A stretch of DNA of 64,000 nt from Nocardioides sp. PD653-B2 (GTDB lineage: Bacteria > Actinomycetota > Actinomycetes > Propionibacteriales > Nocardioidaceae). Position 1 is the stretch's first letter. Each line of letters begins with the position of its first letter. The notes beneath the pieces are model-generated. The model searched no databases. It was not told where the DNA came from and worked only from the letters and a program-made list of their open reading frames with translations. The stretch spans positions 186,001 through 250,000 of the forward strand of contig NZ_BDJE01000004.1 of the NCBI RefSeq assembly GCF_002117935.1, in the 5' to 3' direction. The position numbers and the translations under genes were made by a program. Of this stretch, positions 10,378-32,761 are shown one piece after another.

Positions 10378-10401
10378 GGTAGGTGTGGTAGAGCCGGATG
10401 A

Positions 10402-13677: not shown

Positions 13678-13742
13678 TCTTATCCGCTCCTCCGCACAGG
13701 CGTGTCCGCTCTCATCAGTCGTCTCTTATCGGCCGTCTCTCA

Positions 13743-14204: not shown

Positions 14205-14252
14205 CGCGTCCTCCTCGACTTCGGTGGTCGGTTCAGCATTGGTGAACTCGCT

Positions 14253-15020: not shown

Positions 15021-15026
15021 GAAGAC

Positions 15027-15245: not shown

Positions 15246-15309
15246 TTGACCTACCACCTGAGTTCGCGAACTCAGGGTCGGAACCGCGCCGTATGCGAGG
15301 CTGAAGGCG

Positions 15310-15741: not shown

Positions 15742-15767
15742 GACAACCACTCCTGCCTGAGCGGGAA

Positions 15768-15971
15768 CTACTCAGTGGGGATGTTGTTGGCTTTGCTGGT
15801 GAGCTTGGCGACGATGATCGCGATGATCGCGATGGCGGCGACGGCGATCAGGCCCGTGATGATGACGATCGTGGTCAGTTCGACGGCGCCGCGCTCGTCC
15901 TTCTTGAGCTGCGCAAGTCGCATCCGCGCGACGATGATCAAGGTGGTGAGCATCCGTACTTCGGTGTTCAT
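15768..15971 (-). CDS. Flp-type pilin-like small protein
   Basis: A 67-residue protein. A basic segment ends in KKDERGAVELTTIVIITGLI, followed by a hydrophobic helix and a short polar tail (SKANNIPTE). The Gly-Ala-Val-Glu pattern with glutamate at position 5 of the predicted mature form matches class III/Flp pilins that are cut by a prepilin peptidase. An AAGGAAC ribosome-binding site precedes the ATG. No prepilin peptidase gene is visible in this cluster. Confidence 0.7.
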   Translation of the reverse strand: MNTEVRMLTTLIIVARMRLAQLKKDERGAVELTTIVIITGLIAVAAIAIIAIIVAKLTSKANNIPTE

Positions 15972-16113
15972 CGAATGTTCCTTTCCGTTGGCCTTTCAGG
16001 TGATCTGCGCTCGGCTAGGCCCTCCCGAGACGTCCGGCGGCCCCGCGCTCGGGGCGACTGCCGGTTGGCGCGGTTGGCGTCGGGCTGGTGATGTGACACG
16101 TGCCGTTCATCGC

Positions 16114-17013
16114 TCAGAACCCCATGACTGCGACCACGCCGGGGAAGCCAAGGAAGATCAAGAAGCCGAGGAACAGCACGATCTGTCCGAACTCCATGGT
16201 CTGGTTGGCCTTCTCTGCTCTTCCCTCGGCTTCGGCCAGCTGACGGCGCCGCGACGTGGCGGCGCGAGCGGTAAGCGACTGCCTGACCTTGGCGCCGTCG
16301 TCAGCGACCAGGTTCAACGCGCCGCCGAGGTCGACGAGCTCCTGCATCCCGGTCCGCTCGCCCAGATCGGCGAGCGCTGCCCACGGGGTCTCGCCGACCA
16401 GACGGGCCCGCTCGATGGTGGAGCGGATCAGCTCGAAGGCCCAGCCCTGCCCGATCCGGGCGGCCGTGGGGAGGGCCTCGGGGATACCTCGGCCGCCCGC
16501 CAGGCTCATCGAGACCAGGTCGAGATAGGTGGCCAGGGCGCGACGGAACTCGGTGCGGCGCCGCTCAGCGGCCTGGGTAACTGACAGGTCGGGAACCCAG
16601 AAGAAGATCCCTCCCATGACCAGCCCGGCGGCCAGGGGGACCGTCAGCGGTGGAGTGATGCCCGCCGCCATCACGGCGAGTGTTGCGATGCTCGGGGCGA
16701 TCAGTCCCAGCAGCCCGAAGGTCAGCTTCTTCACCAGGTGGGCCTCGAGGGTGTAGTCGGTGATCTCCAGGTCGGCGCGCAACTTGTTTAGGGTGATACC
16801 GCGTTGGGCGAGTTGGGTGGCCATCCATCGGCCGAGCCGTGCCTGGGTGCTGACCTCACCGGCATCAGGGGCCGCGGCAACGGCGACCCGGGTCCGCTGC
16901 CGCTCCCACCGGCTGACCACCGAGGACAGCGCGGGCCGGGGTGGCACGAGCGCGAAGATCAGTAGGCACACCGCAGCGCCGAGGCTGCAACCCAACAGGA
17001 GTCCAAGACTCAT
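16114..17013 (-). CDS. TadC-like type II secretion F family protein
   Basis: A 299-residue membrane protein with an N-terminal helix (MSLGLLLGCSLGAAVCLLIF), a central helix pair (APSIATLAVMAAGITPPLTV) and a C-terminal helix (GQIVLFLGFLIFLGFPGVV). The cytoplasmic part around SMSLAGGRGIPEALPTAARI is the GspF-type domain. It pairs with the TadB-like protein to form the pilus platform. The ATG at 17013 overlaps the TadB-like stop (ATGA); the longer frame from 17226 lies inside that gene. Confidence 0.8.
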   Translation of the reverse strand: MSLGLLLGCSLGAAVCLLIFALVPPRPALSSVVSRWERQRTRVAVAAAPDAGEVSTQARLGRWMATQLAQRGITLNKLRADLEITDYTLEAHLVKKLTFGLLGLIAPSIATLAVMAAGITPPLTVPLAAGLVMGGIFFWVPDLSVTQAAERRRTEFRRALATYLDLVSMSLAGGRGIPEALPTAARIGQGWAFELIRSTIERARLVGETPWAALADLGERTGMQELVDLGGALNLVADDGAKVRQSLTARAATSRRRQLAEAEGRAEKANQTMEFGQIVLFLGFLIFLGFPGVVAVMGF

Positions 17014-17903
17014 CGACTGGTACCTCCCGTCGCCGAGACCGCGGCATCGACCTGGTCGACGCCGACGAGGAACCGCTCGGGTGGGGTGATGTTCGCCGCT
17101 GCCCTGATCCACATCAGTCCGGCTCCCAGCGTGCACAGCACGATCGCGAGCATCATCTGGCCCAACGGCGAGTTGTAGGGCGCGACGTACTCGCGTGAGA
17201 ACAGTGTCAGCGTCCCGCCGAGGCACGCGGTGAAGACGACAATGATCGTGGCCGTGCGCCGCAGTACCTTGCGCTTCTCTTCCATGCGCCGCGCGCTGTC
17301 GATCTCCTCGCGCGCGGAGTCGGCAAGCGCCGTAAGCGTGGCGACCAGGCCAGGCCCCCGGAGCTTGGAGTTCAAGATCAGTGCAGCCACGACCTTGTCG
17401 GCCGCCGCGTCGGAGAACTCATCAGCGAACCCGGCCAGTGCGGCGGGAAGGAGGTTGCGGGAGCGGATCTGGCTCATCAGGCGCTGGAGGGGCGGCTGGA
17501 TGACACTTGGGGCGGCATGGATCGAGTGACCGATCGCCTCCTCGAGCCCGATCGACCCGGCGATAGAGTCGCGCAGAGACTCGGTCCACACCGCGAGCCC
17601 TTCGAGTCGCTCGATGTGCGAGGCGGCGTCCCGAGCGCCACCAAACATGGTGGGCCACAGGTAGATCACGGCGATGCTCGCACCCGCAGCAACGGGCCAG
17701 CGGGTCAGGACAGCGACCACCAACCCCACCGCCAGGGCGATCCCGAGCCGCCGGCGTGCCTGCGGCCCGAACAGTATCTCTGCGTGCCCAGTACGGCTGA
17801 GCCGTCGCGTCGGTCGCCACCCCCACAGAGCCGCGACCAGCAGCAGCAGGCTGCCACCCAGCGCCAGGCCGAGAAGGAGTCCGGTGAACATGGTCAGGGA
17901 CAT
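17010..17903 (-). CDS. TadB-like type II secretion F family protein
   Basis: A 297-residue protein starting MSLTMFTGLLLGLALGGSLL, seven bases after the ATPase stop codon. Hydrophobic segments lie at both ends and a GspF-type cytoplasmic domain in the middle (SIAGSIGLEEAIGHSIHAAP). With the TadC-like partner it would form the inner-membrane platform on which the TadA-like ATPase acts. An in-frame GTG/ATG at 17960 would overlap the ATPase gene and is less likely. Confidence 0.8.
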   Translation of the reverse strand: MSLTMFTGLLLGLALGGSLLLLVAALWGWRPTRRLSRTGHAEILFGPQARRRLGIALAVGLVVAVLTRWPVAAGASIAVIYLWPTMFGGARDAASHIERLEGLAVWTESLRDSIAGSIGLEEAIGHSIHAAPSVIQPPLQRLMSQIRSRNLLPAALAGFADEFSDAAADKVVAALILNSKLRGPGLVATLTALADSAREEIDSARRMEEKRKVLRRTATIIVVFTACLGGTLTLFSREYVAPYNSPLGQMMLAIVLCTLGAGLMWIRAAANITPPERFLVGVDQVDAAVSATGGTSR

Positions 17904-17910
17904 GGCCAGA

Positions 17911-19230
17911 TCACCAGCGTCCTGCTCCGGGCTGCACCCAGCCGGCCGCCGCCAGCTCATCTATGCGACCTGGGACGGTGCCCGTCCAGACCGCGGAGTG
18001 GCCCTTTGCGGGCGCGGCGAAAATCTCCGAGGACAACACCGACTTTTCGAAACCGTTGACCTCCAGGATGGAGTCCAGCCTCCGGTCGCCGGTGTGTGGG
18101 TCGCGGGAGATGAACACGACGAAGTCCAGGCCGCCCGCGATCAGCTGATAGCTGGCCTCGTGCGGCAGCCGCTCCTCGGATTGGATGGCGTAGGTGGCGA
18201 TCCTGTTGAACACGTCACGGGCCGATCGGGCGTGGATCGTGGACAACGAGCCGTCGTTGCCTTGGCCCATGGCGTTGAGCATGTCGATGACTTCCGGGCC
18301 GAGGACCTCCCCGACGATGACGCGGTCGGGGTTCTGCCGCAGTGTGCGCTGCACTAGGCGAGCCATCGGGACCGCCCCATGCCCCTCGCTGTTGGCCACC
18401 TTGGCCTCGAACTCCACGCAGTTCGGGTGGCGGTCGATGTCCTTGCGCAGCCCGAGCTCCAAGGCCTTCTCGATGGTGATGATGCGCTCCTCAGCCGGGA
18501 TCTCGCCGGCCATGGCCCGCAGCAACGTCGTCTTCCCGGCGTCGGTGGCCCCAGCGATCATCACGTTGGCTCGGGATTTGACGATGGCTGTCAAGAATGC
18601 GGCCGCCTCCTCGGTGACCGAGCCCAGGCCGACCAGGTCGGCCAGCGCGACCTTCTCGAACCTGTGCCGTCTGATCGAGATTGATGGTCGGACAGAGACA
18701 CCCATCACCGCCGAGAGGCGGGAGCCATCAGGTAACTGTAGGTCAAGCTCAGGGTTCGCTGAGTCCCACGGCCGGGAGTTCAACCCCGCGTAAGATGCCA
18801 GGGTCTGGACGAGCTCGATGAGCTCCTCGTCGGTGCTGGCGACCGGCTCGAACGGCTCGGGATGGGCTGAGCCGGCCCGGGTGATCCACACCTCGTCACA
18901 CCCGTTGATGTCGATGTTCTCGATCGACTCGTCGTTGAGCAGCACCTGGAGCCGCCCGGCGCCGAACATCCGCGCGTGAACGCCCTCGGCGAGAGCGAAC
19001 TCGGTTTCGTCGCCCAGAGTGGGCTTGCCGCGGGCGAGTAGTTGCTCAGCATGTCCACGGATAACGTCGGCGATGATCTTCCTCGCGAATTGCTGCTCGG
19101 CCATGCCGCTCAGCTCCGCCACCCTTTCCCCTCGCCGCTGGGCCGCCTCGCGCCGCTCCTTCTCGATGTGTAGGAGTTCCCCGGTTCGCCGATGGATGTG
19201 CTTGACCAGATCCTGGTCCACCTCGCTCAT
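17911..19230 (-). CDS. TadA/CpaF-like secretion ATPase
   Basis: A 439-residue ATPase with Walker A GATDAGKT at residues 227-234. Other family features are LNDESIENIDINGCDEVW near 97-115, the SIRRH stretch near 185, and VIVGEVLGPEVIDML as Walker B region. It is the hexameric motor that drives Flp pilus extension. Its ATG overlaps the upstream TadZ-like stop (ATGA at 19227-19230). Confidence 0.9.
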   Translation of the reverse strand: MSEVDQDLVKHIHRRTGELLHIEKERREAAQRRGERVAELSGMAEQQFARKIIADVIRGHAEQLLARGKPTLGDETEFALAEGVHARMFGAGRLQVLLNDESIENIDINGCDEVWITRAGSAHPEPFEPVASTDEELIELVQTLASYAGLNSRPWDSANPELDLQLPDGSRLSAVMGVSVRPSISIRRHRFEKVALADLVGLGSVTEEAAAFLTAIVKSRANVMIAGATDAGKTTLLRAMAGEIPAEERIITIEKALELGLRKDIDRHPNCVEFEAKVANSEGHGAVPMARLVQRTLRQNPDRVIVGEVLGPEVIDMLNAMGQGNDGSLSTIHARSARDVFNRIATYAIQSEERLPHEASYQLIAGGLDFVVFISRDPHTGDRRLDSILEVNGFEKSVLSSEIFAAPAKGHSAVWTGTVPGRIDELAAAGWVQPGAGRW

Positions 19231-20000
19231 GCCGACACACCTTCCTCGACCGGGACCATCTCGCCAGCCATTGCCTTCGCGGCCCTCAGCAGCAGCGTGC
19301 GGCCCAGCCGACCAGAGGCTCGCTCGCCCTGCTCGAGCCGAGCCAGTGCCCGGGGGTCGTGGGGCATCGATCGGGTGGCCAGGGTCGGGAGTCCCGCCTT
19401 TCCCAGCAGCTCGTCGAGATCAGCCCGGTCGCGTGCCGCGCGGGCATCGGGGCCAACCAACACCGGCATCACGCTCTCCGCACCATGCTGCGCCAAGGCA
19501 CCCATCAGGTCCTGGAGCCCATCGGTCAGGTGCATAACCGACTCCAACGAGGTCGAGAGCACCGGCAACAAGTACGTGCTCGCCTGCGCTAGCGGGAGAT
19601 GCGCACTCGCACGGTCCAGCCGACCCAGGTCGGCGATCACGTCGACCTCGGCCGCCGTGCACGCGGCAGCGATCGAGCTCCACAGACCGCTCAGCCCTCG
19701 GGCCTGGGCTGAAGAGGACACTCCCGGTACGAGGCTGGCCCCGCAGCCGAGCAGCTCGGCCTCCTCGAGGATAGGGTGCCCGTCTGGGACACCGCCCCGA
19801 ACAGCGGCGGCCAGTCGCAGCAAGCCCTTGGCCGCCGGGATCGGCCCCCCGGGGGCCGCCCGACACCGGTAAGCCAGGTCACCACCGGCCAGGTCGGCCT
19901 CGAGCAGCACCACAGGCCGCGGCCACACCGCAGCCAGTGCCAGGGCCGTCGACGTCACCCCCGGCGACCCCTTCATCGAGCAAAGGCCGATCACCGTCAC
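19227..20000 (-). CDS. TadZ/CpaE-like ParA-family protein
   Basis: A 257-residue protein starting VTVIGLCSMKGSPGVTSTAL; the deviant P-loop KGSPGVTST has the first lysine of ParA proteins. TadZ/CpaE proteins locate the pilus machine. GTG at 20000 follows a strong GGGGGAG ribosome-binding site that lies in the end of the upstream gene; an in-frame ATG at 20102 inside that gene is rejected. Confidence 0.8.
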   Translation of the reverse strand: MTVIGLCSMKGSPGVTSTALALAAVWPRPVVLLEADLAGGDLAYRCRAAPGGPIPAAKGLLRLAAAVRGGVPDGHPILEEAELLGCGASLVPGVSSSAQARGLSGLWSSIAAACTAAEVDVIADLGRLDRASAHLPLAQASTYLLPVLSTSLESVMHLTDGLQDLMGALAQHGAESVMPVLVGPDARAARDRADLDELLGKAGLPTLATRSMPHDPRALARLEQGERASGRLGRTLLLRAAKAMAGEMVPVEEGVSA

Positions 20001-20004
20001 CGGA

Positions 20005-20751
20005 TCACTCCCCCGCCTTCTGGGCGCCGGGCGGTGCGGTCTCCACGATGGCGATGCGGTTCTGGGTCGAGTAGGCCGAGATCCGCCCCGAATCGGAGGC
20101 ATCCACGATCAACGTCACGAGCACCTGCCCGCCGGACGCGGCTGCACCCTCGACGCTATAGACCTCCGCACCCTTAGCCAGGACCTCTGGGGTATCGAGT
20201 GCGGTCGGGTCGTTCTGGGCGGTGTCAGTGGCAGGGACTGCGATCACGTCAACGACGTCTCCCGGATCCAAACCAGCACCGGGCACGCGGGCCGGGTCGA
20301 GTGCGAGGCCGACAGTGGACTGTCCAGCGCCGGGGACCGGTGAGGCGGTGACCATGCCGGCGGTCAGGATCTGTCCATCGACCAGGTCGACCACCGCGGT
20401 CTTGCCGACCAGGGTGTCGATCTGCGCGACTGGAATCGCCCCATTCACCCCCGCGACTGAGGTGGACACCAGGTCCTCTCGGGCAATTACATGCCCCTTG
20501 GCGATCGGCTCACCGACAGCGAGAACTGACTCCCGCTGCCCGACGTGCAGGCCCCACGCCGCGACCGCGAGCCCGGCTCCAATCACCAGCAGCGCGGCAA
20601 GCGTCACCAGGCCCCAGGAACGGTGGCGCTGCCTACCGGGCGGGCCAGTGGCAGCCCGCCGGCTGCCGGACAAGAGACCTTCGACTGGTACGCGCAGGCT
20701 CCGCGCTGGCTGGCCCTTGGTAGTGCTGTCTCTTGCCATCGCGTTGCTCAC
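20005..20751 (-). CDS. CpaB/RcpC-like SAF domain protein
   Basis: A 248-residue protein with a basic N-terminus, one membrane helix at about 48-70 (WGLVTLAALLVIGAGLAVAA), and a SAF-type domain (GEPIAKGHVIAREDLVSTSV and following). The RcpC part includes GLDPGDVVDVIAV. It is thought to stabilise the Flp secretin or pilus channel in the envelope. An alternative ATG lies five codons in (MARDS). Confidence 0.8.
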   Translation of the reverse strand: MSNAMARDSTTKGQPARSLRVPVEGLLSGSRRAATGPPGRQRHRSWGLVTLAALLVIGAGLAVAAWGLHVGQRESVLAVGEPIAKGHVIAREDLVSTSVAGVNGAIPVAQIDTLVGKTAVVDLVDGQILTAGMVTASPVPGAGQSTVGLALDPARVPGAGLDPGDVVDVIAVPATDTAQNDPTALDTPEVLAKGAEVYSVEGAAASGGQVLVTLIVDASDSGRISAYSTQNRIAIVETAPPGAQKAGE

Positions 20752-20768
20752 CGGTCTCTTGCCCTTCC

Positions 20769-21722
20769 TCAGTCGATGACGACCGACTGACGCTCACCAA
20801 CGCGGGTCGCGGTCGGGTCGCTGACGAACCCTGGAACCTCGCCGAGCGTGCCGCCGCCGTCGATGCAGACCCCCGAGCAGGTCCAGTCGGCCTTGTAGGT
20901 GATCTGGGCGGTCACCGGGAACTCTCCCTCGGGCTGGAAGTCCGACACCTTCTGGAAGGCGTAGGAACAGTCCGTGGTCTCGCTCGAGCTCATGCCATTC
21001 ACCCAAGCCCGCCCGGCGGAGGTGCACTTCTTGGTGCCGTCAGTCAGATCCCACGTGACTCGAACCGGCCTGGCGACCACCGTGACGGTCGTGTTGCCGA
21101 CCGTGGCACTGCCGGTCACGTTGCTCCACTGGTCGGCGTTCATCCACAGCCAGGTCTCCAACCCGACATAGGTCATCAACGGCGGCTGGGGAGCCATGTG
21201 TACCGTTGGCTTCGCCAGCGGCATCGACTCAACGATGGACTCCGCTATCTGTCCCGGGTCAGGAGGAGCCTCGCCGCCGGGAACGAACCAAGTGTTATCC
21301 GGGATCGACATCGTGTAGTCACAGCTGTAGACGCTGCCCTCGCTCGGGTCGTGACCCTCCCACATCGGATCACCGGCTGGCGGCTGGGGGACGATCGCGA
21401 ACGAGTAGCACTGGTGCGACGGGTCCCATGTTCCGCCATAGCCATCAGTGCACGGCACCTCGGCCCCACTCGCGTCGTGGCAACCCGTAGAGCCAGGGCT
21501 GCCGCCCTCGTCACCGGGGTCGCCACCGCCCGGATCGCCCGGATCTCCGGGGATCGAGACTGGGATGCAGACCCATCCGGCGCCGGCCTGAGTGGGTACA
21601 GTCCCGGGCGGGCAGGCGGGCGGGTCATCGTCGCCGGCGGTGGCGGCCGGGACATACAACAGTGAGGAAACCAGCGCTGCCAGCGCCCCGCCCAGCGCCC
21701 GAGTCAGGAGTTGGGATCGCAT
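20769..21722 (-). CDS. Secreted protein of unknown function
   Basis: A 317-residue protein with a signal peptide (RALGGALAALVSSLLYVPAA, cut after about ATAG), a Gly/Asp/Pro-rich linker of PGDPG type, and an exported domain with several cysteines. No family is recognised. Its position at the head of the Tad cluster suggests an extracellular or pilus-associated role. The ATG overlaps the 3' end of the upstream lipoprotein gene by 19 bases. Confidence 0.65.
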   Translation of the reverse strand: MRSQLLTRALGGALAALVSSLLYVPAATAGDDDPPACPPGTVPTQAGAGWVCIPVSIPGDPGDPGGGDPGDEGGSPGSTGCHDASGAEVPCTDGYGGTWDPSHQCYSFAIVPQPPAGDPMWEGHDPSEGSVYSCDYTMSIPDNTWFVPGGEAPPDPGQIAESIVESMPLAKPTVHMAPQPPLMTYVGLETWLWMNADQWSNVTGSATVGNTTVTVVARPVRVTWDLTDGTKKCTSAGRAWVNGMSSSETTDCSYAFQKVSDFQPEGEFPVTAQITYKADWTCSGVCIDGGGTLGEVPGFVSDPTATRVGERQSVVID

Positions 21723-22336
21723 GGTTTGTCCTTCTTGCCTCCGGCGCCGGGGGTGTCGATGAGTGCGTAGATGAGCCAGTCGTATCCCTCGGGCTTGCTC
21801 AGGCTGATCTCACGGAGCACAGGAACCTGCCGCGAGGCGATGGGCTTCGTCGGCTTGTCGTGCTGAGTCGTCTTTACTTCTCTCCAGTCGACGCACTGCC
21901 GGATCGTCACTGAGCCGCCCGTGTCGCTGATCTTCGTGGCTCTCGACCAGTAGACCTTCGGGGTGCCGGTGATCTTGACCTCGTACTGCTCGTACGTCTT
22001 GAGCTCGTCGAATCGGACTCGCCATGCCGGACTTGGGAAGTAGTCACGGAAGAGCTGCTGTGCTGCCTTGGTCGCCTCCCCCTTCGCGTAGATCGGCTCG
22101 GAGCGGGATTCGTAGGACTCGAAGCGCTGGAGAGCGGCGTCGTACGCCTTGAGCTGCTCCGGAGTGAACCTGGCCCGCCATGCGTCAGGGTCTGCGGTCG
22201 GTGTCGGAGACGCCGTTGGCACACTGCTCGTCGGAGCGCTCGGGGTGGGCTTAGTCTTCGGCTCGTCGTCTCCCGCGCAGCCGGCAAGGGTCCCGGCGAG
22301 GGTGAGGGCGATCGCGGCAACGACGGTGCGTTTCAC
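21704..22336 (-). CDS. Lipoprotein of unknown function
   Basis: A 210-residue protein starting with the GTG at 22336 after an AGGAAGGA ribosome-binding site. The lipobox is LAGTLAGC, with the modified cysteine at about residue 20, followed by a Thr/Pro/Ser-rich linker. The exported domain has no recognised motif. The same frame is open to 22774 but that extension would bury the lipobox. It is the first gene of the Tad-linked minus-strand run. Confidence 0.7.
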   Translation of the reverse strand: MKRTVVAAIALTLAGTLAGCAGDDEPKTKPTPSAPTSSVPTASPTPTADPDAWRARFTPEQLKAYDAALQRFESYESRSEPIYAKGEATKAAQQLFRDYFPSPAWRVRFDELKTYEQYEVKITGTPKVYWSRATKISDTGGSVTIRQCVDWREVKTTQHDKPTKPIASRQVPVLREISLSKPEGYDWLIYALIDTPGAGGKKDKPCDPNS

Positions 22337-22885
22337 GGGGGTCCTTCCTGAGCCCGAGGTGCCCGGTCGACGAGCCTTGGGCACCAACATGAGCGAACGT
22401 GGTCGACAGGTGGCGCCCGTGTTCGCCTCCCTGTGCATTGGGTTCAAGTCGAAGTCCCCTTCCTCTATTGGCGCGCTACCTGGTGAGAGCAACTGGTCAC
22501 GGGCGGGATCGGACACCTCAGAGCCAGAAGTTCCGGAGGAATCTCTTGGCGGCTGGGCTGTCGAACTCGCGGTGGCGCCGGAGCCGGGGCGTGGGCAAGC
22601 GGTAGCCAGCGTCGACGAACTGATCGGAAGCTTCAGTCGAAACGGTCGGTTGCGCGCCTTAGGCGTCGATGAAGTGCTGACATCCATCGGGGTGAGGCGC
22701 GTGGCGGCGGCCGCACTCTCCCGCCCGAGAAGCTTAGTGCCCCTTGGGTACAGGTCTTGGTGTTTCCGAGCCATGCCGCGCCTGTGTCTTTCCGAAACTC
22801 CGGCCTCGCGGACGCCGGGAGAGGGTCATTGTCGAACGCGTTGTCAGCAAGGGAAAGGCGCCCTAACGGGGGGTTAACGCCCTTT
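22337..22885. other. Gene-free stretch between the lipoprotein and ArsR-like genes
   Basis: About 550 bases between divergent genes. Open frames on both strands lack recognisable protein features. It should contain the promoter of the Tad-linked run, but I could not identify a convincing one. Confidence 0.5.
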
Positions 22886-24512: not shown

Positions 24513-26591
24513 GTGGCGCTTCACATCAGCCGGCTTCGGATCTCGAACTTTCGCAACTTCGCTGAGTGCGAGATTGCCCCGTTTCCCGCGCCGGCAGTCA
24601 TCGTGGGCGAGAACGGTATCGGCAAGAGCAACATGCTGCACGCGCTCCGGCTCGTTCTGGATCCGGACCTGCCCGACTCGGCACGCCAGCTGAGGGCCGA
24701 GGACATCCATGAGGGGGCTACAGGGCCGTTCGGGCATGGCTTGGCGGGCGGCGCCGAAGTCGTCGTCGAGGTCGACTTCGAGGGATTCGACGACGAGGCG
24801 GACGCCCTCGCGATCTTGTCTGATGCGCTGACCAAGGTGACGCGGCCGCGTCGTGCCCGGCTCGTGTACCGGTTCGCGCCGAGGGCACCGCTCAACATCG
24901 ATGAGCCACCCGAACCCGGGGACGATCGCGTCGCGTACACGCCGTTGGACTACGACTTCCAGCTGACCCAGGGCACCGACGACGACGCCGACGGTTCACG
25001 GGTGCGGCGCTACATCAGCCTGCGCGTCCTGCCAGCCCTTCGCGACGCCGAGAGTGACCTTGCCCGATGGAACCGGAGCCCCCTGCGGACGCTGCTCGAG
25101 GAGATGCCCCTCGACCGGACCAAGCTAGAGGCGATTGCCGGCGACATCGATGCCGCCGCCGACCGACTGGCTCACGAACCAGAGGTCGACCGCCTCCAGA
25201 AGGACCTGGCGGCCAGGCTAAAGCGACTCGTCGGACCACAGCTTCCCGTCGACCCCCATGTAGGAATCGCCTCCAAGGATCCCGATTCCCTGCTGCGGGG
25301 TCTGCGCCTATTTGTGGACTCCTCTCGTACCAGGACCGTGGCCGACACAAGTCTCGGAGCGGCGAATGTTCTCTATCTTGGGATGCTCATGGAGGCCCTG
25401 GCGGTGCGGCGCGCCGCCAGCGCTTTCGTGACGACAATCCTGGGGGTCGAGGAGCCCGAGGCCCATCTGCATGTTGCGGTCCAGCGCCGCCTGTTCCGAC
25501 ACCTCCTGGCCACCGAGCCGGCGATGCTGCTGACCACACACAGCCCTCACATCGCCGCTGTCGCGCCCCTGGAGTCCTTGCTGCTGCTGCGGGCGAGCAC
25601 CTCAGGCACGATCGCAAACACCACCCTCGACGCGGGGCTGACTGACGGAGAGTCCCAGGACATCAGCCGCTATCTCGACGTCACTCGCGCAGAACTGCTG
25701 TTCGCGCGCTTCGTCATCCTGGTTGAGGGAGCGGCGGAAACCTACGTCGTTCCTGCCATCGCAAGGGCCGCCGGGTTCGATCTCGACGAGTACGGCGTCG
25801 TCGTCGTCAACGTCGCCGGCACCGACTTCGCGCCCTACGTCCAATTGCTCGGAACCCACGGCCTCCAGGTGCCCCACGTGGTCATCACCGACGGCGATCC
25901 CCTCCGTGGCTCTAAGAGATCCGAGCAAGGCCTGCAACGAGCTGCCCAGCTCGTCGAGGACGATGACCTCCGCGAGCAACTCGAAGCCGACATCGAAGAG
26001 CTGAGGCGGCTCGAGCAAGAGGGCGAGAACAGGGAAGCACTCAGTCTCAGGCGCACCCTGCAGGACACCTGCGCCGCCGAGGACATCTTCGTCGGCGACA
26101 GCACGCTCGAGCTCGACCTGCTGTCCTTGCTGGGCGACGAGCTGGCCGTGGCCTACTCCGAGCTCGCGAGCGAGGGCCGAGCGGAGGGCATGGCTCGCGA
26201 CATCCGCCTCATCCTCGACGCCGAGGGAACAGCAGACATGATAACGGCCCCCACGCAGGCTCTGGCCGATCGGGCGAGCGCAGAGAACTCAAGTCGCGCC
26301 ACGCACCAGCACCGCCTGGACCGAGTCCTCGCACGCGTGGAGGCTCGCGGCAAGGGACGCATCGCGCAGCGCTGGGCGCATCACATCGAGGATGTGGATC
26401 TGCGGAAGTGGCTGGCAGCGCTGCTTGAGTGTCTGGGTCCGCAGGTCGACAGTGACATCACCGACGGCAGCACGGAGGTCGACGCCGAGCTGATCGCGTC
26501 GAGCGGACCAGCCCGCGCATACTTGCGCGCCTTGGACCGCGTGAGCAGAGCTGTCCGAGGCACCGCTCTCCTGCCGCCGACGGAGTCGTGA
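24513..26591 (+). CDS. OLD-family ATPase-nuclease, Gabija GajA-like
   Basis: A 692-residue protein. The ATPase half has LRISNFRNF at the start, Walker A GENGIGKS at residues 32-39, an ABC-like SLGAANVLYLGML signature, and Walker B ILGVEEPEAHLH. The TOPRIM half has VILVEGAAETYVVPAIARAA from about 400 and VITDGDP near 457, followed by a helical insert and VGDSTLELDLL. This is the class 2 OLD architecture of Gabija GajA, a phage-defence DNA nickase, though it is about 110 residues longer. GTG at 24513 follows GGGGA; the upstream ATG at 24405 lies before a candidate -10 box and is less likely. The UvrD-like helicase gene follows after one base. Confidence 0.8.
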   Translation: MALHISRLRISNFRNFAECEIAPFPAPAVIVGENGIGKSNMLHALRLVLDPDLPDSARQLRAEDIHEGATGPFGHGLAGGAEVVVEVDFEGFDDEADALAILSDALTKVTRPRRARLVYRFAPRAPLNIDEPPEPGDDRVAYTPLDYDFQLTQGTDDDADGSRVRRYISLRVLPALRDAESDLARWNRSPLRTLLEEMPLDRTKLEAIAGDIDAAADRLAHEPEVDRLQKDLAARLKRLVGPQLPVDPHVGIASKDPDSLLRGLRLFVDSSRTRTVADTSLGAANVLYLGMLMEALAVRRAASAFVTTILGVEEPEAHLHVAVQRRLFRHLLATEPAMLLTTHSPHIAAVAPLESLLLLRASTSGTIANTTLDAGLTDGESQDISRYLDVTRAELLFARFVILVEGAAETYVVPAIARAAGFDLDEYGVVVVNVAGTDFAPYVQLLGTHGLQVPHVVITDGDPLRGSKRSEQGLQRAAQLVEDDDLREQLEADIEELRRLEQEGENREALSLRRTLQDTCAAEDIFVGDSTLELDLLSLLGDELAVAYSELASEGRAEGMARDIRLILDAEGTADMITAPTQALADRASAENSSRATHQHRLDRVLARVEARGKGRIAQRWAHHIEDVDLRKWLAALLECLGPQVDSDITDGSTEVDAELIASSGPARAYLRALDRVSRAVRGTALLPPTES

Positions 26592-26592
26592 C

Positions 26593-28434
26593 GTGGCCGT
26601 CTCCGTGAGAAGACCACGTGGCCTGCCGCGTCGCCTTGCCGAGGCGATCGAGGAACTCGACGCTGAGCAACGTTCGGCGCTGGCCGCACAGGGCAATCTG
26701 GTCATCACGGCGGGGCCAGGAAGCGGCAAGACCCGTACCGTAGTGGCCCGGGCCGGCTACCTCCTCTCGACCCAGATCCAGGCTCCGCGCGGGTTGGCGA
26801 CCATCACCTACACCAATCAAGCCGCATCCGAGCTTCGCGAGGGACTCGCTCAGCTGGGGGTGGAAGCTACGCAGCGCCTGTTCGCCGGCACAATGCACTC
26901 GTTCTGTCTCGCTCACGTCCTGCCGTACGCAACGCTGGTCGGAACCAACCTTCCGCCGCTGGACCGCCTGATGACGAGACCACAGATCAGAGACCTCGAG
27001 CAGGAGTGCGCAGACGCGATCGGGGTCAACGTGTGGGATCTGCAAGAAGACTTCCCCGGGCTGCGACGACGAGTGGCTGCGGGCGAGGATGTCTCCAGCG
27101 AAGCGCCGGCCTACGTGCGCGCGGTCGAGCACTACGAGAGGCTGTGCGAACGTCGCGGCATCTGGGACTTCGAGGGAATCGTCCTGAGTTCGGTGCGGCT
27201 CCTAGAGGATCACCCGGAGATAGCTGAGGTCATCCAGGCGAAGTTTCCCGTCGTGATGGTCGACGAATACCAGGATCTAGGTGCCGGTCTGCATCGACTG
27301 GTCGAGCTGCTCCTGGCCTCGGGGGTCGAGATCACCGCAGTCGGAGACGTCGACCAGAGCATCTTCGGGTTCAGCGGCGGCGATCCGGTCTATCTCGAAG
27401 AGCTGTGTCACCGCGATGACTTCACGGTGCGCCGGCTCGTGACGAACTATCGCTGTGGGTCGGCCGTGGTCGCGGCAGCCGAACTCACCCTCGATCAGGC
27501 GCGGGGCTACAGCGCAGACCCGCGGCGCACCGATCCAGGCGTGCTTGAGTTCAGGGTGGTCGAGGGCACCCCGGCTGAACAGGCTCGCAACGTCGTTGCT
27601 GCGGTGCGCCAGTTTCTCGACGCTGGGCTTGCCGCTGAGGAGGTGGCCGTCCTCGTGCGGAACCGGAAGCCGTTGGCGCCCCTGACCGAGCGAGGGCTCC
27701 GCGCCGCGGGGATACCGGTGCAGCACGGCGGGCTGGCAACGGGACCCGCAACCGAGCTGGGGCGGTGGCTCGAGGCAGCCGCGCTCTATGCGGTGCGCAT
27801 GTCGGACCAGTCTGTCGCGGACCTGCCGCCCCAGGTCGGCGCGAACCGCCTCCTGGATCGCCTGGAGTCGCTGCGCCGGGTCGCTGGCAACCCCAGGCCC
27901 AGCCAGCCCCGGCTCGCGCGAGTAGCTCAACTGCACGCCACGCTGCTGGGCGATACCTCGGCGCCAGACCTCACGGTGCGCGCCTGGTTGCGTCGGGTCG
28001 TGGAATCGCTGGACCTCGAGGAGCTTGCCCGGGACGTGGGTGACCCACGGTCGCACGATGAACTCAACGAGCTGCTCACGACCTCCGAACACGTTGCACT
28101 CGCCGACCTTGCCTCCGACTCCGCGGGAACTGGAAGGGTCGTGATCTCCACCTTCCACGGCGCAAAGGGGCGCACGTTCTCGGCCGTCGTGATTCCCGGG
28201 CTGAGCGAAGGGGTCATCCCGCCCTGGACGGGCCCGGTCAGGCGCCGCAGGCCGAAGACGGGTCGAGCTCTCCAGGAAGAGCGGCGTGGCTTCTACGTCG
28301 CCTTGACCCGCAGCCGCGGCAGCGTTCTGCTTCAGGTCTCGAGTACCGGCGTCGACCATCAGGGATACGACACCCGACGGGGCTATTCGAGCTTTGCTCG
28401 GCAGTTGGCTGATCGACTCGGCACGAACCTGTAG
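26593..28434 (+). CDS. UvrD-like superfamily 1 helicase, Gabija GajB-like
   Basis: A 613-residue helicase with all main SF1A motifs: GPGSGKT at 41-47 (I), YTNQAASELREGL (Ia), VDEYQDL (II), GDVDQSIFGF (III), NYRCGSAVV (IV), ISTFHGAKGRTFSAVVIPGL (V) and FYVALTRSRG (VI). One base separates its GTG from the stop of the OLD nuclease gene, so the two are one operon. An OLD nuclease followed by a UvrD helicase is the definition of Gabija; GajB is usually shorter (near 500 residues). Solo UvrD repair helicases are not normally paired with an OLD protein. Confidence 0.8.
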   Translation: MAVSVRRPRGLPRRLAEAIEELDAEQRSALAAQGNLVITAGPGSGKTRTVVARAGYLLSTQIQAPRGLATITYTNQAASELREGLAQLGVEATQRLFAGTMHSFCLAHVLPYATLVGTNLPPLDRLMTRPQIRDLEQECADAIGVNVWDLQEDFPGLRRRVAAGEDVSSEAPAYVRAVEHYERLCERRGIWDFEGIVLSSVRLLEDHPEIAEVIQAKFPVVMVDEYQDLGAGLHRLVELLLASGVEITAVGDVDQSIFGFSGGDPVYLEELCHRDDFTVRRLVTNYRCGSAVVAAAELTLDQARGYSADPRRTDPGVLEFRVVEGTPAEQARNVVAAVRQFLDAGLAAEEVAVLVRNRKPLAPLTERGLRAAGIPVQHGGLATGPATELGRWLEAAALYAVRMSDQSVADLPPQVGANRLLDRLESLRRVAGNPRPSQPRLARVAQLHATLLGDTSAPDLTVRAWLRRVVESLDLEELARDVGDPRSHDELNELLTTSEHVALADLASDSAGTGRVVISTFHGAKGRTFSAVVIPGLSEGVIPPWTGPVRRRRPKTGRALQEERRGFYVALTRSRGSVLLQVSSTGVDHQGYDTRRGYSSFARQLADRLGTNL

Positions 28435-28577: not shown

Positions 28578-30029
28578 TTACATGTAGTGGGCATAGCGTC
28601 CCGACACCGGCGCGTCGGATTCGTGGTGCCTGAGGATGATGCCGACGGTGCGCGCGGTGCGAAGCGTGATGGGGATCCGACCGTCAAGCCGGGTCTGGTT
28701 CCAGTTCATCTTCGTGAGTGCGAGGGTTTCGGCCGCCAGGGTCTCCGGGCTTGACTCCGCTTGGACGGTTCTGATCCCGAGTGGCTGAGGTACATAGTGC
28801 CCGGGGTAGGTCTTGTAGAACGGTACGGCGCCGGTTGTGTAGAGCAGGTGGCGTTTCTCGCCAATGCTGACGAAGGTGCCGCGCAGCGGTGGCTGCTGAC
28901 CCTTTCGGTACAGGCGGAGTTGGTCGGAGCTCGTGAGCCACAACAGTTCCAGGACATCGAGGCGTTCGGTGTTCGCAGCCTGGTTGAACCCGGCCGTCTC
29001 GGCGGCGGTGTAGTTGCTGGCTTTGTGTAGGACGACCCGGGCGGGGGCGGTTCGGTGCTCGGTGCGGTAGCGCTGGAGTGCTGTTTCGAGCAGGTCGCGC
29101 GCGTCGTCCTCGGACAGGTGCGGTTGCCGGTCTTCCTTGGACACGGTGGCCGGGCCGCCGCGCACGATGACGCCGTCGCCGCGCTGGTTGTAGATCTGGG
29201 CGACAGAGGTGTGCAGGTTTGTGTCCGCGGTCTTGTGGAAGGCGATGCCGATGTAGCACGACGCTAGGTCGGAGGCTTCGCGTGGTAGGCGCCAGGGAAC
29301 GCCGCCGTTCTTGTAGTACAAGGCCGTGTGGAGGTTCCATGCTCTGGTTGCCTCGTCCTGGTTCGCGCCGGCACGTCCGGTGTGCGGGTCCTTGAAGGTC
29401 GCGTCCCAGGTGTTGCGGCGGACGATCTGGATGGGCTGCTTGTACCGCAGTGACCGTGCCTTGAGTAGTGCGTGGAAGTCCGCGACGAAGACGTCGCGGC
29501 CATCCTTGGATGATCCGTCGACCTCGAGCACGTCTGGGCTCTTCGGTGCCTTCGACATTGCGGCGTCGTTCAGGTTGTCGGGACGGCACACGATGACGAC
29601 GTCGCAGGACGGCTCGTCGTGAAGCGCGGCAAGTTCAGTGTCGTAGATGTCGACCGCGGCCGCGACCGCCTTCTTGGGGTGCAGTCCGTTCAGGGCATCG
29701 AGTTGCCGCTTGGGGATGGCTCGGGTGAGTCGCGGGGTGAAGTTGATGATGGATCGGAACCCGTGGGTGACGTCGAAGCCGGGGAACGGGACGTACAGAC
29801 GGGTGAGGTGGGTGTCGGTCATGGCGCCGATTCCGAGCCGGCAGCGATCGAGCCAGGCCTGCAGTCCGTCGATTGATTCTTGGGGTCCGATGATGGCTGC
29901 CCTGACGATACGTGGCGTGGGGTCTTTGATGTCTGCGGGCCCGTAGTCCCAGATGCCGTGTCGCGGATCGATGTGCCGTCCGCCGCCGGCGAACTCGAGC
30001 AGTGGCTCCTCGATGAATGTGGCCCTCAC
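28578..30029 (-). CDS. Short prokaryotic Argonaute (MID-PIWI), catalytically inactive
   Basis: A 483-residue protein with only MID and PIWI domains. Landmarks are RYKQPIQIVRRNTWD (about 195-209, MID/PIWI), YYKNGGVPWRLP (238-249), SCYIGIAFHKT (257-267), ARVVLHKASNY (330-340), TTGAVPFYKTYPGHYVPQPL (398-417), TLALTKMNWNQTRLDGRIPI (435-454) and a C-terminal YAHYM. The strand that carries the first catalytic aspartate in active Argonautes reads YIGIAF, and the second reads VVLHKAS, so the cutting tetrad is missing, as in all short pAgos. It would act as a guide-directed sensor. The GTG at 30029 overlaps the TGA of the DUF4365-APAZ gene (GTGA). The longer frame from 30266 is inside that gene. Confidence 0.9.
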   Translation of the reverse strand: MRATFIEEPLLEFAGGGRHIDPRHGIWDYGPADIKDPTPRIVRAAIIGPQESIDGLQAWLDRCRLGIGAMTDTHLTRLYVPFPGFDVTHGFRSIINFTPRLTRAIPKRQLDALNGLHPKKAVAAAVDIYDTELAALHDEPSCDVVIVCRPDNLNDAAMSKAPKSPDVLEVDGSSKDGRDVFVADFHALLKARSLRYKQPIQIVRRNTWDATFKDPHTGRAGANQDEATRAWNLHTALYYKNGGVPWRLPREASDLASCYIGIAFHKTADTNLHTSVAQIYNQRGDGVIVRGGPATVSKEDRQPHLSEDDARDLLETALQRYRTEHRTAPARVVLHKASNYTAAETAGFNQAANTERLDVLELLWLTSSDQLRLYRKGQQPPLRGTFVSIGEKRHLLYTTGAVPFYKTYPGHYVPQPLGIRTVQAESSPETLAAETLALTKMNWNQTRLDGRIPITLRTARTVGIILRHHESDAPVSGRYAHYM

Positions 30030-31411
30030 CGCCCGGCCTCCTCGAGCTCGTCGAGGGCGTCGAGCAGGTCGTCGTCTTCGGCCACCGTGAATGGAGAGAC
30101 CTCGTCCGTGGGCTCGACGCCTGTGTCGGCGTCGGGGGCGAGCCAATGCTTGTCGGTGATGCCGCGGTTGAGGTCGAATCGGATGGGCGCCCCGAAGTCC
30201 AGGATCCGGGGAGGCGGTTCGTAGAAGAGGTCTGGTGTCGTCTCCCCGATCAAGAGACTGACCCACATCAGCGTTTCGCTCAGGCGTGCCTGGTTCTTCT
30301 CGATGCGCTTCATCTTGGCCAAGTTCTTGTCTGCGAACTTGAACTCCACGTAGCCGTCATCGGTGAAGTAGTAGTCCGGAACGAGCTCGCAGAACCACTC
30401 GTCGTCGACTTGCAAGAAGTACGTCCGGAGGGCCGCGTGCCGGTAGAACTGTGGTCGTGTCGGGTCGTCGACCCGCTGGTAGTAACCCTTGAAGACGAGT
30501 CGCTGCTTGCCTGACATCGACGTAATGCGCCGCTCGGTCAGGTCGTCAGTCGCCCTGAAGTGCAGGAACTTCCGGTCGTTGTTCCAGCGAAGGTCGTCCT
30601 GTAGATCGTCCTTCAGTGCTGCGTTCAGCAGCCAGACCGCCAGGCGCTGCTCGTCCGCATCGCCACCAGCGAGCTCACCGAATGCCATAGCCGTAACCGG
30701 GCCGGTGACGACGTCCTGGAGCGATGTGCCCTCGGCCGGTGACCACATGTAGATGCGACCCTTCGTCAGGACGAAGTCTGATCTGTAGACCAGCCCGGAG
30801 TCTCGCTGCGAGTCATATACCGACTTCAGTCCTCTGTGCTTGGTCTTTGCGACGTACACGACGTCAGGCACCGCGACCGGCAAGAGGTTCGAGACAAGCC
30901 GCTCGTGCTTCTTCTCCGCCGCCGGCGTGTGCGCCACACCGTGGGGATCTGCGATAGCGAACAGCTTGCCGGTGAAGTCGCCCTCGAAGGCCTGGGTCGC
31001 CTTGTTGAAGTCGATGCGACGCGACGCCCTGTTGGCCGGCACCTCGAACCACGGCTGGACATGGGCCCACCATGCCTTCCGGTCCTTGGGGTGGGAGCAG
31101 ATGAGGATGACTGGGGTGTCCTGTGACTTCATCCAATACTCGATGTCCTCCTCATCGCACAGATACCAGAATCCGTCGTCTGTCTCGCCCGAGAACTTGT
31201 CGTCCGAGGCCTTCGACTGCACCATCACGTGCTGGTTGGACATCAGGCCGGTCGAAGGGTCACGCAGTTCGATGCTGCCGTCGATACCGACATCCACGAC
31301 GCGGTCATGCCACTCGTGCCCCATCTCGGAAATGAGCATGTGGATCAGACCGATGCCGGCATGACCCTTGTGCTGGCTTTCGGTGAACTTCTTCGGTCCG
31401 CTTCGCCCCAT
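30026..31411 (-). CDS. DUF4365 (DREN-like) nuclease fused to APAZ, partner of the short Argonaute
   Basis: A 461-residue protein. The N-terminal DUF4365 region has ESQHKGHAGIGLIHML, DVGIDGSIEL at 40-49 and VMVQSKAS at 63-69, giving the D, E and QxK residues of a PD-(D/E)xK-type nuclease. The C-terminal half (about 290-400) has features of APAZ: YYQRVDDPTRPQFYRHAALR, EWFCELVPDYYFTDDGYVEF. This domain pairing with a short pAgo is the SPARDA layout, in which guide-target recognition unleashes DNA and RNA degradation. The ATG follows a GAGGG ribosome-binding site. Its stop overlaps the Argonaute start, so both are made from one message. Confidence 0.85.
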   Translation of the reverse strand: MGRSGPKKFTESQHKGHAGIGLIHMLISEMGHEWHDRVVDVGIDGSIELRDPSTGLMSNQHVMVQSKASDDKFSGETDDGFWYLCDEEDIEYWMKSQDTPVILICSHPKDRKAWWAHVQPWFEVPANRASRRIDFNKATQAFEGDFTGKLFAIADPHGVAHTPAAEKKHERLVSNLLPVAVPDVVYVAKTKHRGLKSVYDSQRDSGLVYRSDFVLTKGRIYMWSPAEGTSLQDVVTGPVTAMAFGELAGGDADEQRLAVWLLNAALKDDLQDDLRWNNDRKFLHFRATDDLTERRITSMSGKQRLVFKGYYQRVDDPTRPQFYRHAALRTYFLQVDDEWFCELVPDYYFTDDGYVEFKFADKNLAKMKRIEKNQARLSETLMWVSLLIGETTPDLFYEPPPRILDFGAPIRFDLNRGITDKHWLAPDADTGVEPTDEVSPFTVAEDDDLLDALDELEEAGR

Positions 31412-31428
31412 CGACCCTCATCTCGGAC

Positions 31429-31455
31429 TGGTCCCTACACGCAGGTTAGGGACCA
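31429..31455 (-). promoter_or_regulatory. Inverted repeat before the Argonaute operon
   Basis: TGGTCCCTA (31429-31437) and TAGGGACCA (31447-31455) are perfect 9-base arms around 9 bases, 18-44 bases upstream of the ATG at 31411. It is either an operator near the promoter or a hairpin in the leader. No regulator gene is adjacent. Confidence 0.5.
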
Positions 31456-32360: not shown

Positions 32361-32374
32361 GAACTGGGAAAACG

Positions 32375-32447
32375 TGGAGACTAGGGGACTCGAACCCCTG
32401 ACATCTGCCTTGCAAAGGCAGCGCTCTACCAGCTGAGCTAAGTCCCC
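32375..32447 (-). tRNA. tRNA-Ala (anticodon UGC), complete, element-borne
   Basis: A 73-base cloverleaf: acceptor GGGGACT with AGTCTCC, including the G3-U70 pair that marks alanine tRNAs; D-arm GCTC/GAGC; anticodon stem CTGCC/GGCAG with loop TTTGCAA; T-arm with TTCGAGT. CCA is not encoded. It differs clearly from the chromosomal tRNA-Ala start next to it (GGGGCCTTGGCGC), so it is not a duplication of that gene. It probably supplies the function lost when the element split the host gene. Confidence 0.9.
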
Positions 32448-32468
32448 TTGTTCAGTTAGCTGGCCCAC
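32448..32468. other. Inner edge of the attachment junction
   Basis: Twenty-one bases between the truncated chromosomal tRNA-Ala and the complete element tRNA-Ala. The tRNA T-arm that should follow position 43 is absent here, which places the element boundary at or inside the anticodon stem-loop next door. Confidence 0.55.
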
Positions 32469-32511
32469 CCTGCTTGCAAAGCAGGTGCGCTACCAATTGC
32501 GCCAAGGCCCC
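32469..32511 (-). pseudogene. 5' part of the chromosomal tRNA-Ala, split at the attachment site
   Basis: Bases 1-43 of a tRNA-Ala(UGC): acceptor GGGGCCT, D-arm GCGC/GCGC, and the full anticodon hairpin CCTGC-TTTGCAA-GCAGG. Then the sequence stops matching a tRNA; variable loop, T-arm and acceptor 3' half are missing. It directly follows DLW-39, where actinobacteria have their tRNA-Ala. The perfect anticodon hairpin is the likely crossover core. The missing 3' half should be at the far end of the element. Confidence 0.8.
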
Positions 32512-32650: not shown

Positions 32651-32687
32651 GGTGGCTCCCAGATGACGGGGTGACGTGCCGGGATGG

Positions 32688-32761
32688 TGGGCCTAAGAGG
32701 ACTTGAACCTCTGACCTCTTCCTTATCAGGGAAGCGCTCTAACCGTCTGAGCTATAGGCCC
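32688..32761 (-). tRNA. tRNA-Ile (anticodon GAU)
   Basis: A 74-base cloverleaf with acceptor GGGCCTA/TAGGCCC, anticodon stem CTTCC/GGAAG with loop CTGATAA, and T-loop TTCAAGT. CCA follows at 32685-32687. It lies between the DUF3566 gene and DLW-39. Confidence 0.95.

What the first reader, a model, noticed from the sequence alone, without database searches (positions are those of the whole stretch)
28578..31455. SPARDA-like short Argonaute operon on a mobile element
A short, catalytically inactive MID-PIWI Argonaute is coupled by a GTGA overlap to a DUF4365-type nuclease fused to an APAZ-like domain. The nuclease motif (D40, D44, E48, QxK65-67) is intact while the PIWI tetrad is replaced (YIGIAF, VVLHKAS). 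Few systems of this DUF4365/DREN-APAZ class are described, and an actinobacterial one beside an attachment site would extend the family. Established: short pAgos work with APAZ partners, and SPARDA uses a DREN-APAZ nuclease. Inferred: this pair acts the same way.
Basis: partly seen in the sequence, partly recalled or inferred. Interest (0 to 1): 0.85.

Follow-up and report, generated by a model that had tools for sequence, protein, structure and literature searches.

The report
SPARDA short-Argonaute operon on mobile element
An actinobacterium carries, on a large transferable DNA element, a two-gene RNA-guided suicide-nuclease defence of an already described kind; it looks like an intact member rather than a new sort of system.

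Summary
The finding is real and correctly read. Window 28578-30029 (-) is a 483-aa MID-PIWI short Argonaute. Window 30026-31411 (-) is a 461-aa DUF4365(DREN)-APAZ nuclease. They overlap by GTGA. Both match solved SPARDA subunits over nearly their full length and in predicted fold. D44/Q65/K67 of the nuclease are intact; the two PIWI Asp positions placed are Ala. Both genes are under strong purifying selection. It is not new in kind: an actinobacterial relative, TmuRE-Ago, is characterised (PMC10810196), 57% identical in the Argonaute and in the same 27-row clade; one genome collection held 243 matching stretches. 'Mobile element' is confirmed: the operon lies about 1 kb inside one end of a ~140-kb conjugative-type element (integrase, TrwC relaxase, coupling protein) that splits the chromosomal tRNA-Ala(UGC) near oriC. 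Likely action: RNA-guided recognition of invader DNA switches on indiscriminate DNA cleavage. A Thermocrispum-like guide pocket suggests a 5'-U guide (inference).

The parts
28578..30029 (-). short prokaryotic Argonaute (MID-PIWI, inactive PIWI), 483 aa, GTG start
30026..31411 (-). DREN (DUF4365 PD-(D/E)XK nuclease, about residues 7-145) fused to APAZ (about residues 146-425), 461 aa, with a low-confidence C-terminal tail (426-461)
30026..30029 (-). GTGA stop/start overlap coupling the two genes; a 4-bp overlap is seen in 47 of 78 related loci (starts taken from tblastn matches)
24513..26591 (+). GajA of a Gabija system (AAA ATPase + OLD-type TOPRIM); GTG at 24513 is my guess for the start, the longest ORF begins at 24117
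26593..28434 (+). GajB (UvrD-like helicase) of the Gabija system, convergent with the Argonaute gene, 143 bp apart
32374..32447 (-). complete tRNA-Ala(UGC) gene carried by the element, just inside its right end
32468..32485 (.). right 18-bp attachment core CCCTGCTTGCAAAGCAGG (anticodon stem-loop of the chromosomal tRNA-Ala); the other copy is at contig C4:78090, outside the window
32468..32511 (-). stranded 5' half of the chromosomal tRNA-Ala(UGC) gene; its 3' half is 140 kb away at about C4:78060-78107
32685..32761 (-). chromosomal tRNA-Ile(GAU), first gene outside the element, followed by DUF3566 (32878-33396) and gyrA (33393-36152)
1994..22774 (-). element genes of a conjugation/secretion type: TraG-like P-loop (1994-3556, below cut-off), TrbL/VirB6 (5263-6954, just at cut-off), Tad/TadE (13743-14741), T2SSE ATPase (17911-19230), SAF/CpaB (20005-20751), with unassigned ORFs between

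Best explanation
This is a SPARDA system of the Thermocrispum (TmuRE-Ago) branch, carried as cargo by an integrative conjugative-type element in a Nocardioides. Shown by sequence and model: a MID-PIWI Argonaute without Asp at the two PIWI positions placed, an intact DREN nuclease fused to APAZ, overlapping genes, and selection that keeps both proteins. Inferred from TmuRE-Ago and NbaSPARDA: the two proteins form a heterodimer; a short RNA guide is held by the MID pocket; pairing with complementary single-stranded invader DNA (plasmid, phage or rival element) makes complexes assemble through the PIWI faces; this brings DREN domains into tetramers that cut DNA indiscriminately and kill or stall the cell before the invader spreads. 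Further inferred from pocket residues: the guide starts with U, as in Thermocrispum, rather than A-U as in NbaSPARDA.
For: PADLOC and Pfam matches; full-length matches to SPARDA chains in the PDB for Ago (9qbl_B E 4e-89, 9jsb_A E 1.6e-77) and for DREN-APAZ (9jsb_D E 3.8e-43); AlphaFold models (pLDDT 85.7 and 86.6) whose best PDB matches are SPARDA chains. Catalytic D44/Q65/K67, aligned to Nba D41/Q60/K62, kept in 73, 74 and 72 of 74 rows. Nuclease and APAZ parts found upstream of the Argonaute in 76 and 77 of 80 genome loci; three of the four loci without the nuclease end at a contig edge. dN/dS against the Phycicoccus homologue 0.046 (Ago) and 0.089 (DREN-APAZ). Same well-supported 27-row clade as TmuAgo (support 100/99); pocket residue 204 is R in 26 and K in 1 of these 27 rows, TmuAgo being R. 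The activity of TmuRE-Ago and NbaSPARDA is from PMC10810196 and PMC12205087.
Against: No function was measured and no complex was modelled. Contacts of NbaSPARDA are only partly kept. PIWI-PIWI filament contacts E253, R285, K324, E360 are E251, R283, R322, D358, but R287 is D285 and F256 is L255; position 251 varies widely among relatives. The MID-PIWI, MID-MID and Ago-Ago dimer residues mapped are changed or lack a counterpart. Of the seven DREN tetramer residues, read by eye from the alignment, only R33 and E45 are kept (R37, E48); E13, N17, R20, Q29 and D31 are H17, G21, H24, E33 and H35. R183 (5'-phosphate contact) is H186 and R221 has no counterpart. So guide chemistry and oligomer geometry may differ from NbaSPARDA. 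No sigma-70-type promoter consensus was found in 28400-32400, which says little in an actinobacterium. The U-guide inference rests on residues shared with one tested homologue.
Confidence: 0.93

Rival explanations
1. The operon is a SPARDA in descent but no longer works (decaying cargo of an old element).
For: It sits on a mobile element, where cargo often decays; some relatives look broken (Nocardioides alcanivorans L126 has interrupted frames in both genes, possibly an assembly error; Kutzneria L097 has an orphan Argonaute with an integrase-like ORF where the partner should be).
Against: Both frames are open and full length, catalytic residues are intact, and dN/dS is 0.046 and 0.089 against Phycicoccus.
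Confidence: 0.05
2. (Not exclusive of the best explanation.) The system works like SPARDA in its chemistry but its main job is to protect the conjugative element against rival plasmids and elements, rather than the host against phages.
For: It is carried about 1 kb from the end of a conjugative-type element; 23 plasmid records hold a relative of the DREN-APAZ over at least 80% of the query, and 19 of all 29 matched records are typed conjugative (the weakest six are partial, SMEK- or unnamed-type), while 50,697 phage records hold no match to the Argonaute and a viral-contig scan confirmed only one. NbaSPARDA interferes with plasmids (PMC12205087).
Against: NbaSPARDA also defends against phage T5 (same paper). 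Gabija, an anti-phage system, lies next door, as in a general defence cluster.
Confidence: 0.4
3. SPARDA and Gabija here act as one combined system, the convergent pair being a functional unit.
For: They are adjacent and convergent, 143 bp apart. The Phycicoccus homologue keeps 3.2 kb of this arrangement including a 49-residue remnant of this GajB, followed by another GajA/GajB-like pair.
Against: Matches to the window's GajA or GajB (tblastn E up to 1e-4) were found in only 5 of 81 related loci, to both genes in only 1 (L066) (other types of Gabija were looked for by profile in L063 alone). In Phycicoccus the original Gabija is reduced to a remnant while SPARDA is intact. Each system is known to work alone (recalled).
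Confidence: 0.04

Closest known systems
TmuRE-Ago (Thermocrispum municipale DUF4365-APAZ / short pAgo, PMC10810196)
   Same: Actinobacterial; same domains and gene order; same clade (100/99); Ago 57% identical over 474 aligned columns; its active-site residues Q62/K64 (mutated in the paper) presumably correspond to Q65/K67 here; pocket residues D184, F185, K190, R204, Q224, N232, K240 shared.
   Different: H186 instead of R, M158 instead of A; DREN 53% and APAZ 41% identical. Guide preference not measured here.
NbaSPARDA (Novosphingopyxis baekryungensis, PMC12205087; PDB 9jsb, 9jsz, 9jt2)
   Same: Full-length homology of both subunits; D41/Q60/K62 match D44/Q65/K67; same predicted fold.
   Different: The 5'-A pocket (W159, N181, W201) is M158, D184, R204 here; R183 is H186; most dimer, MID filament and DREN tetramer contacts are not kept.
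XauSPARDA and Enhydrobacter aerosaccus SPARDA (PDB 9qbq, 9qcc, 9qbl; 9qbp)
   Same: Best PDB matches of the Argonaute by sequence (9qbl_B, 9qbp_B) and among the best by fold for both models.
   Different: From other bacteria; seen only as PDB rows, no paper read.
Phycicoccus endophyticus homologue (L063, NZ_JAANCN010000008.1)
   Same: Ago 96% and DREN-APAZ 89% identical; 3.2 kb shared at 87% DNA identity.
   Different: Different family (Intrasporangiaceae); the neighbouring Gabija of the window is only a 49-residue GajB remnant there, followed by another GajA/GajB-like pair.

Membership tests
SPARDA | short pAgo with MID and PIWI only | tested here: met
   483 aa; PDB SPARDA Ago matches over residues 3-482; model TM 0.91 to 9vx1_A
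SPARDA | PIWI catalytic residues lost | tested here: met
   A263 and A337 where active Argonautes have D (canonical motif positions recalled); no D at either in 84 rows. The other tetrad positions were not placed.
SPARDA | partner with DUF4365/DREN nuclease fused to APAZ | tested here: met
   Pfam DUF4365 9.4e-23; PADLOC REase-APAZ type 6.8e-138; fold match of the whole chain and of the APAZ part
SPARDA | intact PD-(D/E)XK active site (Nba D41, Q60, K62) | tested here: met
   D44, Q65, K67
SPARDA | the two genes form one operon | tested here: met
   4-bp overlap here; a 4-bp overlap in 47 of 78 related loci. Co-transcription was not tested.
SPARDA | RNA-guided, DNA-target-triggered collateral nuclease activity | not testable with these tools
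   needs purified complex
SPARDA | activation by filament formation and DREN tetramerisation | tested here: inconclusive
   4 of 6 PIWI-PIWI side-chain contacts kept or conservative, MID and dimer contacts changed, 2 of 7 DREN tetramer residues kept (read by eye); no complex model was run
SPARDA | protection against plasmids or phages | not testable with these tools
   needs a host assay
Gabija (neighbour) | GajA (ATPase + TOPRIM) followed by GajB (UvrD-like helicase) | tested here: met
   PADLOC GajA 6.2e-171, GajB 5.1e-140; Pfam domains
Integrative conjugative element | integrase next to one of two att repeats flanking the element | tested here: met
   tyrosine integrase C4:78155-79528, PF00589 3.7e-16; 18-bp core at C4:78090 and C4:218468
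Integrative conjugative element | relaxase and coupling protein / T4SS | tested here: met
   TrwC relaxase 2.9e-85, TraG-D_C 3.2e-23; TrbL/VirB6 just at cut-off. A complete T4SS set was not demonstrated.
Integrative conjugative element | excision and transfer | not testable with these tools
   needs PCR and mating

The most novel reading that the evidence does not exclude
The element holds its host hostage: it breaks the chromosomal tRNA-Ala(UGC) without rebuilding the 3' half, unlike what is seen in genomes with a related integrase, and supplies its own complete tRNA-Ala about 1 kb from a SPARDA-Gabija defence pair, so that loss of this arm without precise excision would be lethal and the defence cargo is locked to an essential gene beside oriC. 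The SPARDA itself would serve mainly to keep out rival elements and would use 5'-U guides like its Thermocrispum relative.
Probability: 0.25. Interest if true: 0.5.

Novelty: new member of a known kind. Interest (0 to 1): 0.27.

Why it matters
It adds a well-preserved SPARDA of the actinobacterial branch with full genetic context. It gives a clean test pair for guide choice: MID pocket residues R204/D184/M158 against NbaSPARDA's W201/N181/W159. It also shows a SPARDA as cargo of a conjugative-type element, consistent with the 23 plasmid records that hold a relative over most of its length. None of this changes the understanding of how SPARDA works.

Tried and rejected
Considered and rejected: a SPARTA, SPARSA or SPARHA membership (the nuclease partner is DUF4365, and TIR, SIR2 and HNH complexes rank below SPARDA). 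A strict H186/R183 split between the Thermocrispum and Nba branches was my first idea for guide choice; it failed, because position 186 is H in 13 and R in 14 of the 27 clade rows, so only positions 204, 184 and 158 are used; of these 158 varies within the clade too. Gabija-SPARDA coupling as a general rule failed (window-type Gabija matches in 5 of 81 loci, both genes in 1). Finding ppiA directly behind the tRNA in relatives failed in the four 7-kb pieces read; other left-flank genes (about C4:71.4-76.0 kb) were found there in 2 of the 4. Viral contigs with the nuclease protein alone gave nothing, with the Argonaute alignment one distant locus; phage records gave nothing. The promoter scan gave nothing. 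An earlier count said 47 of 77 loci for the overlap; the answer adds up to 78, used here.
Full report
What is there. Two minus-strand genes, 30026-31411 (461 aa) and 28578-30029 (483 aa, GTG start), overlap by the four bases GTGA. The first is a DUF4365 nuclease (Pfam 9.4e-23, residues 18-142) with an APAZ-type C-terminal part (PADLOC Aga_REase-PNTD1-PNTD2 6.8e-138). The second is a class I short pAgo (PADLOC 8.2e-168) with only a sub-threshold Pfam Piwi match (7.1e-5). NCBIfam has no useful match for either.

Comparison with solved structures. By sequence the Argonaute matches SPARDA Argonautes over residues 3-482 (9qbl_B 4e-89, 9qbp_B 8e-89, 9jsb_A 1.6e-77), ahead of one SPARHA (9om4_B 2.9e-69) and SPARTA chains. 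The partner matches only four distinct sequences, all SPARDA DREN-APAZ/DUF4365 chains (9jsb_D 3.8e-43, 9qbq_A, 9qbp_A, 9qbl_A). AlphaFold models from alignments of 55 and 53 rows have pLDDT 86.6 and 85.7. Foldseek ranks SPARDA chains first for both: Ago TM up to 0.91 (9vx1_A, rmsd 2.6). The DREN-APAZ model aligns whole to 9qcc_A (E 5.5e-35) with a low whole-chain TM (0.50/0.56, rmsd 16.5), which I read as a different placing of the two domains (its own pTM is 0.62); in rows where mainly the APAZ part aligns (about 240-280 columns) TMt is 0.76-0.86.

Active sites. Nba D41, Q60 and K62 (PMC12205087, Results parts 1-2 of 3 read) align with D44, Q65 and K67. They are conserved in 73, 74 and 72 of 74 rows. 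PIWI positions 263 and 337 are A here and S/A/T/N in all 84 rows, never D; the canonical positions are from general knowledge. The MID residues that hold the guide in NbaSPARDA are partly kept: K187, K240, Q224, N232, L233 and F182 correspond to K190, K240, Q224, N232, L233 and F185, while W159, N181, W201 and R183 are M158, D184, R204 and H186, and R221 has no counterpart. TmuAgo (L077) has the same D184, F185, K190, R204, Q224, N232 and K240 but R186 and A158. W at 204 is found in 3 of 84 rows. TmuRE-Ago needs a 5'-U RNA guide and works better with 5'-OH (PMC10810196, abstract and Results parts 1-2 of 3 read). I infer, at moderate confidence, the same kind of guide here.

Oligomer contacts. 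Of the NbaSPARDA contacts, four of six PIWI-PIWI side chains are kept or conservative; the mapped MID-PIWI, MID-MID and Ago-Ago dimer residues are not; of seven DREN tetramer residues two are kept (R37, E48; read by eye). Filament activation is therefore inferred from the family and not supported residue by residue.

Relatives and distribution. A scan of the genome collection (84,980 species by the tool's description) found 243 stretches that encode a relative of the Argonaute, of which the best 80 were fetched. The nuclease part is found upstream in 76 of 80 and the APAZ part in 77 of 80; L090, L105 and L135 are cut by contig ends and L097 (Kutzneria) has an orphan Argonaute. A 4-bp overlap recurs in 47 of 78 loci, one of them viral (starts taken from tblastn matches, so approximate). 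The tree of 84 Argonautes puts the window with Phycicoccus endophyticus (100/98) inside a 27-row actinobacterial clade that holds TmuAgo (100/99). The program warned that L062 and L143 are long branches that meet, so the root region is unsure. The Phycicoccus copy is 96% (Ago) and 89% (DREN-APAZ) identical with dN/dS 0.046 and 0.089 by a script of my own (Nei-Gojobori counts), so both genes are under strong constraint. The genus of the window is Nocardioides by inference: same-genus genome G006 has a 4,488-bp contig with the same match coordinates as NZ_FOLB01000029.1, N. terrae. Within this genus 10 of 215 genomes, own included, have a strong match to the Argonaute alignment (E below 1e-150) and four more only a weak partial one. 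Among 394 genomes drawn from the class, 2 (own included) have a full-length partner match and 3 only a nuclease-like part. Among 58 relatives, 2 including the own. In plasmid records 29 have a match to the partner, 23 over at least 80% of the query; 19 of the 29 are typed conjugative.

The mobile element. The window is C4:186001-250000 of its assembly. An 18-bp core, the anticodon stem-loop of tRNA-Ala(UGC), lies at C4:78090 and C4:218468 (= window 32468), 140.4 kb apart. The 5' half of the chromosomal tRNA gene lies at the right end and the 3' half at the left. Joining the flanks gives a complete tRNA-Ala 3' of tRNA-Ile. The tRNA-Ile query matched all 34 relatives searched; loci were returned for 29, and in 26 of these 29 the alignment runs unbroken through the junction to the tRNA's end; L045, L047 and L050 show no tRNA-Ala in the piece held. 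An unbroken tRNA there can also be one rebuilt by another element. In 2 of 4 relatives read further, genes of our left flank follow the tRNA (L056, L057; not L055, L058). Next to the left core is a tyrosine integrase (PF00589 3.7e-16). The element also has a 2020-aa TrwC relaxase/helicase/primase-like protein (2.9e-85) and a TraG/TrwB-type coupling protein (3.2e-23). The window part has TrbL/VirB6, T2SSE and Tad-like genes. In 4-kb bins the element has 0.64-0.71 GC, its near flanks (C4:58-78 kb and 222-246 kb) 0.70-0.74; a further low-GC stretch lies at C4:46-58 kb and was not examined. The right flank is the origin region (DUF3566, gyrA and dnaN by Pfam; other genes there were assigned only by order, from general knowledge).

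The tRNA. The integrase has relatives (E up to 1e-80) in 20 other genomes of the 245 searched of the family, and 19 of the 20 best matches lie beside a tRNA-Ala 3' half (a whole tRNA-Ala in L151, nothing in L146). In 19 of these 20 genomes the 5' half beside tRNA-Ile is continued by a proper 3' half, so the gene is whole there (L194 showed no tRNA-Ala in the piece); I did not settle whether the element rebuilt it or sits elsewhere. In the window it is not whole: the 5' half runs into element DNA, and a separate complete tRNA-Ala(UGC) lies 20 bp inside (32374-32447). Pattern searches of the genome found no other tRNA-Ala(UGC) (exact patterns, so a divergent copy could be missed; ARAGORN's call at C4:78060 is the chimeric left junction).

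Neighbour. A Gabija system, GajA (6.2e-171) and GajB (5.1e-140), lies at 24513-28434. The Phycicoccus locus keeps the last 49 residues of this GajB next to its SPARDA, then a different GajA/GajB-like pair. This shows the two systems travelled together at least once; it does not show that they act together.

Literature. Searches. For PMC6299218 and PMC11706625 I read passages only; for PMC12205087 also passages of the introduction. Prostova et al. 2024 (Nat. Microbiol.) was seen only as a reference entry. None of the papers listed by these searches was seen to describe this Nocardioides system, but most were seen only as listings; the library holds open-licence PMC papers, so subscription papers and preprints were not searchable.

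Verdict. An ordinary, well-preserved member of a known and structurally solved family, in an informative setting. Novelty: new member of a known kind.

Noticed in passing
   Followed up: yes
window 32374-32511 and contig C4:78060-78107 (outside the window): A ~140-kb element splits the chromosomal tRNA-Ala(UGC) at the anticodon loop and carries a whole substitute tRNA-Ala; in 19 of 20 genomes with a related integrase the 5' half is continued by a proper 3' half instead.
   Followed up: partly
L097 (Kutzneria buriramensis) 4705-7452: Argonaute of this branch without its DREN-APAZ partner; an integrase-like ORF (judged by eye) lies on the other strand where the partner should be.
   Followed up: no
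L063 (Phycicoccus endophyticus) 7598-11693: 49-residue remnant of the window-type GajB followed by a different GajA/GajB-like pair: a trace of defence-gene turnover beside a conserved SPARDA.
   Followed up: partly
Argonaute position 285 (Nba R287): Position 285 is D or E in 83 of 84 rows, whereas NbaAgo has R287 there, so the Nba R287-E253 filament salt bridge cannot be general.
   Followed up: partly
contig C4:78155-218467 (window 1-32467): Much of the element outside the window looks like metabolic and regulatory cargo (ORFs judged by eye from their first residues only); not annotated.
   Followed up: no
contig C4:46001-58000 (outside the window): A second low-GC stretch (0.63-0.67) left of the pknA/pknB-like genes, possibly another island.
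   Followed up: no
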